From positions 2,300,789 through 2,364,788 of the forward strand of contig NZ_CP037968.1 in NCBI RefSeq assembly GCF_019633745.1: a stretch of DNA of 64,000 nucleotides, given 5' to 3'. The notes beneath the pieces are model-generated. The model searched no databases, had not been told where the DNA came from, and saw nothing but the letters and a program-made list of their open reading frames with translations. Shown piece after piece: positions 821 through 8,802 of this stretch (its first letter is position 1; each line of letters starts with the position of its first letter). A program made the position numbers and the translations under genes. This DNA comes from Methanofollis formosanus (lineage in GTDB: Archaea > Halobacteriota > Methanomicrobia > Methanomicrobiales > Methanofollaceae).

Positions 821-2078
821 GGTAGTGTTTCAGATCTTCTGTAATTTGTCTGATCCCTGTCTCCTTGCTTGATCATTCCTTCTCCATCGTCAAATACCTT
901 CTGCCGGTCACCCACTCCTCGTTGATGTCATCAAGATGGATCCTGCCAGTCTGAGGAGTGAACCTTCATTGGGAAATGCTCCTACGACTTTCGTTCTGCG
1001 TTTCAGTTCCTTGTTGATTCTTTCCATCATGTTCGTTGTTCGAATCCGTTTTGCATGTTGTTTCAGGAATACTGTGTAACTCATGAGTCCCGGCAGAAAC
1101 CTCTCGATGGTATTCGCTGCTTTCCGATATCCTCGTTCGTTCAGATCATCTGCGACCTCCTGAAGTCTCCCTTCGTTCCCATATGCCTCCTTCAAACTCT
1201 CGGCAACTTCTTTCTGATGTTTCCTGGGAGTATTTCTCAAAACCGCGCGAGTACAGTGGACTGAACACATCTGCCATGATGCACCGAGGAAAGCAGTTTC
1301 TGCTGCTCTCTGGATCCCTGCATGACCATCTGAGACGATCAGTTTGACACCAGTTAATCCTCGTTCTTTGAGTTCCTCGAACAGACCGAACCAGAACTCC
1401 TCATTCTCACAGTCGGTGATTCTGGCTCCCAGGATTTCCCGATAACCGTCCACTCGCACGCCGGCGATCACCAGAAGAGCTTTGGTGATGTACCGGGGTC
1501 CATCTCGGATTTTGAAATAGGAGGCATCGACAAAGAGATAGGGAATTTCCTCTTCAATTGGTCTCTGGAGAAATGCATGGACCTGTTCGTTGAGGTTGTG
1601 TGCCATCCGAGAAACAGAAGAAGGAGAGAGTTGATCGATCCCCAGATGAGCAACGATTTCTTGGATCCGGCGAGTTGAAACACCCTGAAGATAGGATTCA
1701 GAGATCGCATTCACAAGAGCTTTCTCAACCCGAGAATAACGTCCAAATACCTGGGTTTCGAAGGGGAATTCACGGAACTGAGGTTTCTGGAGAACGAGAT
1801 CGCCATAGCGAGTTTTCAGAGAGCAACTCTTGTATCCGTTTCGGTGCGCCTGCCGCACAGCAGTTCGTTCATACGGCTCGGCTCCAGCCTGCTGGAGCGC
1901 CTCCAGTAGCATCACTTCGTTGAGGAACGACGTGAGGAGGTTCTTCATACCATTCTCATTATCGGAAAGATAATTTTCGATAAAAAATAAAGAATTCATG
2001 CCCTGTTTCACCTTTCTGCAAATCTAGGTTGGAGGCAGAGCCTGATCAATTTTTACAGAAGATTCGTTACACTATCTC
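821..2078 (-). mobile_element. IS256-family insertion sequence
   Basis: The element encloses one transposase gene. Its ends carry related inverted repeats: TAGTGT-N5-ATCTTCTGTAA at 822-843 on the plus strand, and the same pattern at about 2055-2075 on the minus strand. The right boundary at 2078 is supported by a second, truncated copy at 8666-8802 that is near-identical up to exactly the equivalent base and then diverges. The right end interrupts an IS4-like transposase gene. Left and right flanks show no matching target duplication, so a flanking deletion after insertion is likely. Confidence 0.85.
908..1999 (-). CDS. IS256 (mutator-type) transposase, C-terminus frameshifted
   Basis: DDE transposase of the mutator superfamily, about 363 residues from the ATG at 1999, which follows a GGTGA ribosome site; a GTG at 2011 is an in-frame alternative. 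Catalytic residues are visible in 'FVDASYFK' (D), 'IVSDGHAG' (D) and 'TTNMMERINKELKRRT' (E). The normal family C-terminus 'DINEEWVTGRRYL' lies in another frame just downstream. Losing one base near 929-932 switches the frame at 'SILM', so the protein ends early at 908 instead of at about 873. The catalytic core is intact, so activity cannot be excluded, but the copy is decaying or carries a sequencing error. Confidence 0.85.
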   Translation of the reverse strand: MNSLFFIENYLSDNENGMKNLLTSFLNEVMLLEALQQAGAEPYERTAVRQAHRNGYKSCSLKTRYGDLVLQKPQFREFPFETQVFGRYSRVEKALVNAISESYLQGVSTRRIQEIVAHLGIDQLSPSSVSRMAHNLNEQVHAFLQRPIEEEIPYLFVDASYFKIRDGPRYITKALLVIAGVRVDGYREILGARITDCENEEFWFGLFEELKERGLTGVKLIVSDGHAGIQRAAETAFLGASWQMCSVHCTRAVLRNTPRKHQKEVAESLKEAYGNEGRLQEVADDLNERGYRKAANTIERFLPGLMSYTVFLKQHAKRIRTTNMMERINKELKRRTKVVGAFPNEGSLLRLAGSILMTSTRSG

Positions 2079-2453
2079 GACGATAATTGTTCGGTGTGTT
2101 CTTCTCTGTGGTCTGCAGTGTGTACGGAGAAGAGCATTGATCAACCCGACAAATCGTCTTTCATCGATCCTGCTGATGAAACGGTACACATCATCAGCTA
2201 AAAGAACCTGTTCGAGATGGGCAAAGGCTCGGAGTTCTTTGCGTTTGTTGAGTTCATCAATGACATACGTGATCTCAGAAGAGAAGAAGAAAGCAATCAG
2301 AAGGATTCGCAGAATCGAACCAGTGTTCTGAACGGAAATAGGACCTTGTTTTGCCATCTCCTGTTTTGAACGACGCGAAGTTGTCATCGAATGAACTTGA
2401 TCAAGGAGAAGCCATTTTGTATCTTCACGATCGACAATGAGTGGGGATTTCAT
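2079..2453 (-). pseudogene. IS4-like transposase, N-terminal fragment cut by IS256
   Basis: About 125 residues starting 'MKSPLIVDREDTKWLLL' and continuing through the conserved N-terminal block of archaeal IS4-type transposases ('TYVIDELNKRKELRAFAHL', 'VYRFISRIDERRFVGL'). The homology stops at 'RTIIV', exactly where the IS256 end begins, just before the first catalytic aspartate would be expected. The rest of the gene is not found on the far side of IS256. Family assignment rests on recalled similarity to Methanosarcina/Methanospirillum elements. Confidence 0.6.
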
Positions 2454-2548
2454 TTTTATCGCTAGATATGATGCCCCCTTTGAGTACGATCAATTTTACG
2501 ATTTTAATCGATACAAAGAGAGGGGAGATTTTGGAGGGGGCTATCTAT

Positions 2549-2587
2549 ATGATAATTGCGACCTTTTGTCATTGACTTGCCACTAGG
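2549..2587. repeat. Remnant of an IS630 end
   Basis: This stretch matches the right end of the complete IS630 copy at about 7290-7330: the shared core 'TTGCGACCTTT', then GTCATTGACT, then CACTAGG, with a few substitutions. No IS630 transposase remains here. It abuts the group II intron reverse-transcriptase remnant, so an IS630 copy probably inserted into the intron and then lost its body. Confidence 0.65.
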
Positions 2588-2752
2588 AAATGGGTCTTCA
2601 AGACAGAGTCGACAAAACTGGTCAGTTTTGTAGACACACAAATTCGCAGACACTCGATGGTGAAGCTTGATGCAAACCCCTATCTGGACAGGGATTACTT
2701 CCGTGCCAGGAGGGAGAAGTTGCGAAGGCAGACGCCATGGAATCAAACATGA
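2588..2752 (+). pseudogene. Group II intron reverse transcriptase/maturase, C-terminal remnant
   Basis: The plus-strand frame reads KWVFKT..., then 'VDTQIRRH', then 'LDANPYLDRDYF' and an Arg/Lys-rich tail, ending with a stop at 2752. The pattern (I-x-R-H, then NPY-x-x-x-x-YF) is the one expected at the extreme C-terminus of group II intron-encoded maturases. The call is greatly strengthened by a canonical intron domain V 50 bases downstream on the same strand. Everything upstream (catalytic RT domain, intron domains I-IV) is missing, replaced by the IS630 end remnant. Confidence 0.6.
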
Positions 2753-2801
2753 CTTTCATTTATTCCATATTGCCGCTCGAATCTCGGGTTGTGAGGTGCT
2801 T

Positions 2802-2872
2802 GAGCGGAGTGCGGTGAAAGTCGCACGCTCCGTTCTGAGAAGGGGGGAAGATGGTAACACCTTCTCCCTATT
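2802..2872 (+). ncRNA. Group II intron domains V and VI (3' end of intron)
   Basis: Positions 2802-2835 form a 34-nt hairpin with the hallmarks of domain V: a GAGC start, a GAAA tetraloop in the context GGTGAAAGTCGC, a two-base bulge on the 3' arm and a GTTC end. It is followed at about 2838-2867 by a second stem (GGGGGGAAG pairing with CTTCTCCC) in the place of domain VI, and then by the presumed 3' splice site near 2870. The intron end lies antisense inside an IS5-type transposase pseudogene. Without 5' domains this is a dead fragment. Confidence 0.8.
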
Positions 2873-3085
2873 CGACGGATCGGACAACCCATACCACTGC
2901 TGTAGCACCAGCAGCCGGAGCATGAGGATAACGTCATAATATGGGCGACCACCGTTCCCGGCATCGTTCGAGTACAGGTCCGCTAGAAGAGGACGGAAGG
3001 CATCCCACTCGATCAAACCCTCACTCGATCAAACCCTGGATCTCGCCTAACCGGTCTCCCTGAGCGGCAAAAGAAGTACATTCGT
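2873..3085 (-). pseudogene. IS5-family transposase, N-terminal fragment
   Basis: The minus-strand translation contains 'LIEWDAFRPLLADLY' and 'GGRPYYDVILMLRLLVLQQW', ending at 'YGLSDPS': the N-terminal region of IS5-type transposases. It is broken twice. A 16-base tandem duplication near 3006-3040 (the motif TCGATCAAACCCT occurs twice) introduces a stop and frame change after 'GLIE', and the homology ends at the group II intron end near 2872. The C-terminal DDE domain is absent. Confidence 0.7.
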
Positions 3086-3228
3086 GCCTAATAGCGGAAT
3101 TGGCGAACGTAATCCTGAGAAAAGATCGATCGGAGGCGATAAAGTACTTTGGAATGGGGAGTTATTCGAAATCCTCATATATCGACTATGACTAATGAAG
3201 ATTAGGATATTTGTGGGAGAGAGAACAC

Positions 3229-7264: not shown

Positions 7265-7436
7265 TGAGGAAGAATTCTATTGTTTATTCTATATCATAGT
7301 TGCGACCTTTCGTCATTGACTCGACACTAGGGGCCACACTGGGGTCAGCCGATGTGTGGCTTAGAACCTATGAAAAATAGTCCCCTCCAGATCTCATGCC
7401 TCTGCAAGCCTCTGTAGTTCGGCCTTCTGGTTTTTT

Positions 7437-8663: not shown

Positions 8664-8665
8664 GT

Positions 8666-8802
8666 TTTTCATACCACTCTCATTATCGGAAAGATAATCT
8701 TCGATAAACGATAAAAGATTCATGCCCTGTTCCACCTTTCTGCAAATCTAGGTTGGAGGCAGGGCCTGATCAATTTTTACAGAAGATTCGTTACACTATC
8801 TC
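8666..8802 (-). repeat. IS256 right-end remnant
   Basis: Near-identical to 1944-2078, the start of the IS256 transposase plus the right inverted repeat. The left side is cut by the partial IS5 copy, and the right side ends at the element boundary, beyond which a different repeat begins. It records a second IS256 insertion later damaged by IS5. Confidence 0.85.

What the first reader, a model, noticed from the sequence alone, without database searches (positions are those of the whole stretch)
2588..2872. 3' end of a group II intron, with canonical domain V, inside an IS5 transposase pseudogene
A 34-nt hairpin with all domain V hallmarks lies at 2802-2835, preceded by a maturase C-terminus and followed by a domain VI-like stem, antisense to an IS5 transposase fragment that resumes right after the presumed 3' splice site. 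The 5' part was replaced by an IS630 end. Group II introns are patchy in archaea and mostly known from Methanosarcina, so a relic here is notable, and the mobile-in-mobile nesting is typical of archaeal introns.
Basis: partly seen in the sequence, partly recalled or inferred. Interest (0 to 1): 0.65.

Follow-up and report, generated by a model that had tools for sequence, protein, structure and literature searches.

The report
Dead fragment of an archaeal retro-intron
This is the last 289 letters of a self-splicing, copy-and-paste genetic element (a group II intron) that once jumped into another jumping gene of a methane-producing archaeon and was later cut short at a third one; it is a genuine but ordinary fossil that can no longer move or splice.

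Summary
Window 2588-2876 (+) is the 3' end of an ORF-containing group II intron. Domains V-VI match Rfam RF00029 at 64.3 bits (E 2.4e-10), with a conserved bulged A and covarying pairs. The upstream frame is the C-terminus of an intron-encoded protein (IEP): up to 72% identical to a Methanoculleus copy, and broken by one in-frame stop. The 3' splice site is 2876|2877: homology to intact IS5 transposase genes starts exactly at 2877, on the opposite strand, and relatives' introns end at the equivalent of 2876 (...TTCGAC). The 5' boundary is an IS630-type end at 2587; the rest of an about 2.1-kb intron (domains I-IV, reverse transcriptase) is gone. The host genome holds only four relics of this intron family and no reverse transcriptase, so the element should be unable to splice or move. 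Intact relatives exist in other Methanomicrobiales and Methanosarcinales. Truncated group II introns among other mobile DNAs are common, and archaeal ones are already known to concentrate in this class. It is an ordinary relic of a known kind. The nesting in an IS is real here, but no transposase turned up beside ten related copies whose flanks were checked.

The parts
2588..2794 (+). C-terminal remnant of the intron-encoded protein (its C-terminal end only; no RT, no maturase X domain), with an in-frame TGA at 2750-2752 and the natural stop at 2792-2794
   Evidence: matches to intact IEPs of relatives, about 40-72% identity; translation
2800..2876 (+). Group II intron domains V and VI
   Evidence: Rfam RF00029, 64.3 bits, full-length model match 1-77; covariation over 19 relatives
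2802..2835 (+). Domain V hairpin: AGC triad at 2803-2805, GAAA tetraloop, bulge
   Evidence: alignment to model; A and C of the triad invariant, G in 18 of 19
2838..2876 (+). Domain VI stem and intron 3' terminus TTCGAC; presumed branch point is the bulged A at 2870, 7th base from the 3' end
   Evidence: conserved bulged A and pairs; 3' end confirmed by IS5 junction
2877..3122 (-). 3' exon: N-terminal part of an IS5-family transposase pseudogene, antisense to the intron (frame broken by a short tandem duplication near 3005-3035)
   Evidence: DUF772 PF05598 E 8.6e-7; 78% DNA identity to IS5 copies in L050/L051 beginning exactly at 2877, and tblastn pieces 3019-2876 and 3122-3024
2544..2587 (.). 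End of an IS630-type element that bounds the intron on its 5' side
   Evidence: 89-93% repeats ending at the same base at window 7288-7331 and at 392,623-392,663, the latter next to an IS630-type transposase (HTH_32, DDE_3)
823..2076 (-). IS256-type (Mutator transposase) element upstream of the IS debris; its inner ORF is 908-2011
   Evidence: PF00872 E 2.2e-99; inverted ends 823-844 and 2053-2074; related copies at 347 and 643 kb

Best explanation
A mobile, IEP-encoding group II intron of a family still intact in other Methanomicrobiales and Methanosarcinales inserted, antisense, into an IS5-family transposase gene. By established knowledge of the family, it did so by reverse splicing into DNA and target-primed reverse transcription. 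Insertion of, or recombination at, an IS630-type element then removed the 5' exon, domains I-IV and most of the IEP. What remains is the last 289 nt of an intron about 2.1 kb long: IEP C-terminus, domain V, domain VI, 3' splice site. It lacks domain I (exon recognition and scaffold) and the reverse transcriptase, and none was found in the genome to supply in trans. So it should neither splice nor move and is decaying. Shown: identity of the parts, both boundaries, absence of the rest, no detectable reverse transcriptase in the genome. Inferred: the original insertion route, the order of events, and present inactivity.
For: Rfam RF00029 64.3 bits, E 2.4e-10. Nineteen related sequences support the D5-D6 structure: 97% of cells paired and covariation score 0.550 versus 0.206 +/- 0.018 shuffled and at most 0.163 when slid. 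IEP C-terminus 40-65% identical to the relatives and 72% to Methanoculleus sp. FWC-SCC1; intact relatives carry RVT_N, RVT_1 and GIIM domains. DNA 78% identical over the first 234 nt to the FWC-SCC1 copy. 3' junction at 2876|2877 from two independent sides: IS5 homology starts at 2877, and relatives end at TTCGAC. 5' junction at 2587|2588 from an IS repeat. Relatives define the full intron as GTGYGACAAG...TTCGAC, 2106 nt in L036. No RVT_1 in the host genome, with the search positive in control genomes, no other IEP pieces except N-terminal and C-terminal stubs, no domain I-like DNA.
Against: None of weight. Domains V-VI keep their pairs, which could suggest constraint, but the stretch is short and the decay may simply be recent. 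Loss of the 5' part could be one IS630 insertion followed by deletion, or several rearrangements; the sequence does not decide between them.
Confidence: 0.97

Rival explanations
1. The fragment is one piece of a split (trans-splicing) group II intron, whose other parts are transcribed elsewhere in the genome.
For: D5-D6 are structurally intact; other relics of the same family exist in the genome.
Against: No domain I-IV-like DNA and no reverse transcriptase or maturase found elsewhere. The host exon is an antisense half of a transposase pseudogene whose other half was not found in the genome, so there is nothing to splice.
Confidence: 0.01
2. The D5-D6 hairpins have been kept for another role, for example as a transcript 3' end or terminator for neighbouring genes.
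For: Very stable fold (z -4.58); D5 pairs kept despite the broken IEP.
Against: The other relics in the same genome are eroding: D5 deleted at 377 kb, poor D6 at 1172 kb. A recent death explains the intact pairs equally well.
Confidence: 0.02
3. Chance hairpin next to unrelated coding sequence.
For: None beyond the short length of domain V.
Against: E 2.4e-10 for a full-length model match, adjoining IEP homology in the correct order, and exact boundary agreement.
Confidence: 0.001

Closest known systems
Group II intron of Methanoculleus sp. FWC-SCC1 (locus L066, NZ_VCYH01000007.1)
   Same: Same IEP C-terminus (72% aa; 78% DNA over 234 nt), same spacing to domain V
   Different: Retains most of its IEP and a 5' end GTGCGACAAG, but its domain V is interrupted by another sequence and its IEP frame is also broken
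Intact Methanomicrobiales group II introns in Methanoregulaceae archaeon UBA467 (L036, L037, L038) and in genome G012
   Same: Same order IEP - D5 - D6, same 3' terminus TTCGAC (TTCGCC in L037); D5-D6 align almost without gaps
   Different: Full length (2106 nt in L036), open IEP with RVT_N, RVT_1 and GIIM, inserted beside non-transposase genes in the copies checked
Archaeal CL1A-type group II introns described in PMC8919778
   Same: Class Methanomicrobia hosts; commonest archaeal IEP type in that survey
   Different: Class assignment of this relic was not tested by phylogeny here; only the C-terminal 68 codons remain

Membership tests
Group II intron (as a sequence family) | Domain V: about 34-nt hairpin with AGC catalytic triad, GNRA loop and bulge | tested here: met
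   RF00029 64.3 bits; triad at 2803-2805, GAAA loop
Group II intron (as a sequence family) | Domain VI with bulged branch-point A near the 3' end, and 3' terminus AY | tested here: met
   A at 2870 conserved and bulged; terminus ...TTCGAC at 2876
Group II intron (as a sequence family) | 3' exon junction at the end of domain VI | tested here: met
   IS5 homology begins exactly at 2877
Group II intron (as a sequence family) | 5' terminus GUGYG and domains I-IV | tested here: not met
   Lost: sequence before 2588 is an IS end; no such DNA found elsewhere in the genome. This marks a truncated member, not a functional one
[quoted passage not shown]
   Only the last 68 codons, one of them a stop; no RVT_1 in the genome
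Mobile (autonomous) group II intron | Self-splicing activity | not testable with these tools
   Needs RNA work; not expected without domain I
Archaeal CL1A IEP class | Position of the IEP in an RT phylogeny | not tested
   No RT domain in the relic; relatives' IEPs were not placed in a reference tree
IS5-family transposase gene (the 3' exon) | DUF772 N-terminal domain and homology to intact IS5 copies | tested here: met
   PF05598 E 8.6e-7; 81% aa identity to copies in G004 and G034

The most novel reading that the evidence does not exclude
The intact D5-D6 is retained by selection, either as part of a split intron or as an RNA 3'-end element, in a lineage that has otherwise lost every group II reverse transcriptase.
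Probability: 0.02. Interest if true: 0.55.

Novelty: already known. Interest (0 to 1): 0.12.

Why it matters
It adds one host lineage to the record of group II intron decay in Methanomicrobiales: four relics and no detectable surviving reverse transcriptase, while related families keep intact copies. That is a clean small case of repeated intron death, partly at IS elements. It tests no open question by itself.

Tried and rejected
A full copy elsewhere in the host genome: none; RF00029 rings three times, and the protein and DNA searches add a relic at 377 kb. The missing half of the IS5 transposase (the 5' exon side): no match in the genome or near the window. Domain I-like DNA in the host: only a 19-bp chance match, E 0.7. 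Pfam on the 54-aa IEP remnant: no hit, too short and outside the RVT/GIIM models; similarity came from direct comparison with relatives. 'Mobile-in-mobile is typical': ORFs abutting ten related 3' ends gave no transposase family, though five of the ten gave no Pfam hit passing its cut-off. Literature on group II introns in Methanofollis or Methanoculleus: nothing relevant.

Full report
Observation. The window has a single Rfam match above its curated threshold: group II intron domains V-VI at 2800-2876, plus strand, 64.3 bits against a gathering score of 40, E 2.4e-10, covering the whole model (alignment). Domain VI follows to 2876. The stretch folds to -37.1 kcal/mol against -22.1 +/- 3.3 for shuffles. 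Over 19 related D5-D6 sequences the structure is supported by covariation: 97% of cells paired, score 0.550 against 0.206 shuffled and at most 0.163 for slid versions. The bulged A at 2870, seventh base from the 3' end, is conserved and is the likely branch point.

The protein part. 2588-2749 reads KWVFKTESTKLVSFVDTQIRRHSMVKLDANPYLDRDYFRARREKLRRQTPWNQT, then TGA, then LSFIPYCRSNLGL and a final TGA at 2792-2794. The same C-terminus, down to its natural end a few bases before domain V, is found in intact intron-encoded proteins: identity 40-65% to the sequences and 72% to Methanoculleus sp. FWC-SCC1. There the codon at the stop is a sense codon and the protein ends ...SLFAYCRPTFGL. Intact relatives carry RVT_N, RVT_1 and GIIM domains and gave no endonuclease domain hit.

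Boundaries. The 3' splice site is fixed from two sides. Relatives end in ...ATTCGAC followed by different flanks, which puts the last base at 2876. DNA homology to IS5 copies in same-order genomes begins at 2877 and runs on the opposite strand (78% identity). At the protein level, in the better relatives the match ends at residue 47 of the fragment, the junction. On the 5' side, a 44-bp sequence ending at 2587 recurs at window 7288-7331 and at 392,623-392,663, where it lies beside an IS630-type transposase with HTH_32 and DDE_3 domains. So the intron is cut by an IS end exactly at 2587|2588. Comparing copies within and between relatives gives the full intron: GTGYGACAAG... to ...TTCGAC, 2106 nt in L036. 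About 14% of such an intron remains here.

The rest of the host genome (2.97 Mb, one contig). No RVT_1 domain was found, although the same search is positive in control genomes. The intron family survives as four relics. The first is this one. The second, at 391 kb, has the start of the IEP joined straight to its end plus D5-D6, with about 1.3 kb deleted inside and an IS256-type end at its 5' side. The third, at 377 kb, has an IEP C-terminus and a D6-like end with domain V missing. The fourth, at 1172 kb, is a degraded D5-D6 (37.6 bits). No domain I-like DNA was found, and the other half of the IS5 transposase was not found. Domain V hits occur in 9 of 61 genomes (the host plus 60 relatives), among them two same-genus genomes with only weak matches (34.7 and 32.2 bits, below the curated threshold).

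Taxonomy. Contig lengths identify G055 with Methanoregulaceae archaeon UBA467 and G050 with a Methanospirillaceae archaeon, so the host order is Methanomicrobiales. The genus may be Methanofollis, but that is a guess from genus and family sizes only.

What it is and how it works. In life this would have been a retro-mobile intron: spliced with help of its own protein, then inserted into DNA by reverse splicing and reverse transcription (established knowledge of the family). It landed antisense in an IS5 transposase gene. It was later truncated at an IS630-type element, and the surviving protein end took a stop. Without domain I and without any detectable reverse transcriptase in the genome it should be inert. 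The order of these events is inferred.

Against the literature. [quoted passage not shown] PMC8919778 finds archaeal group II introns in 28 of 296 genomes, concentrated in class Methanomicrobia, with CL1A the commonest type, and mentions a copy divided by a transposase in Methanosarcina mazei S-6. The present relic fits that picture.

Verdict: observation confirmed, interpretation correct, biologically ordinary.

Noticed in passing
L004 6125-6405 (host genome about 391,124-391,404, minus strand): Intron relic with the first codons of the IEP fused to its end and D5-D6 (internal deletion of about 1.3 kb); 86-87% DNA identity to the intact intron in L036; an IS256-type end abuts its 5' side at 391,405.
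   Followed up: partly
L034 4409-4650 (host genome about 377,408-377,650): IEP C-terminal relic followed by a D6-like stem and CTCGAC with domain V deleted, then an IS256-type end.
   Followed up: partly
L066 2602-2660: In Methanoculleus sp. FWC-SCC1 the nearest relative's domain V is itself interrupted just after the GAAA loop by other sequence, and a second intron copy with an open IEP lies on the opposite strand nearby.
   Followed up: partly
window 823-3122: Pile-up of mobile element debris between a gene ending at 622 and a sugar-nucleotide biosynthesis-like cluster from 3211: IS256-type element, unidentified IS debris (2077-2543, including a 29-bp end repeated at 2,393,392), IS630-type end, group II intron relic, IS5 pseudogene.
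   Followed up: partly
window 3005-3035: Short tandem duplication (CTCGATCAAACCCT repeated) that breaks the IS5 transposase frame.
   Followed up: no
window 7288-7331 and 8664-8802: Further copies of the IS630-type end and of the IS256-type end inside the window.
   Followed up: no
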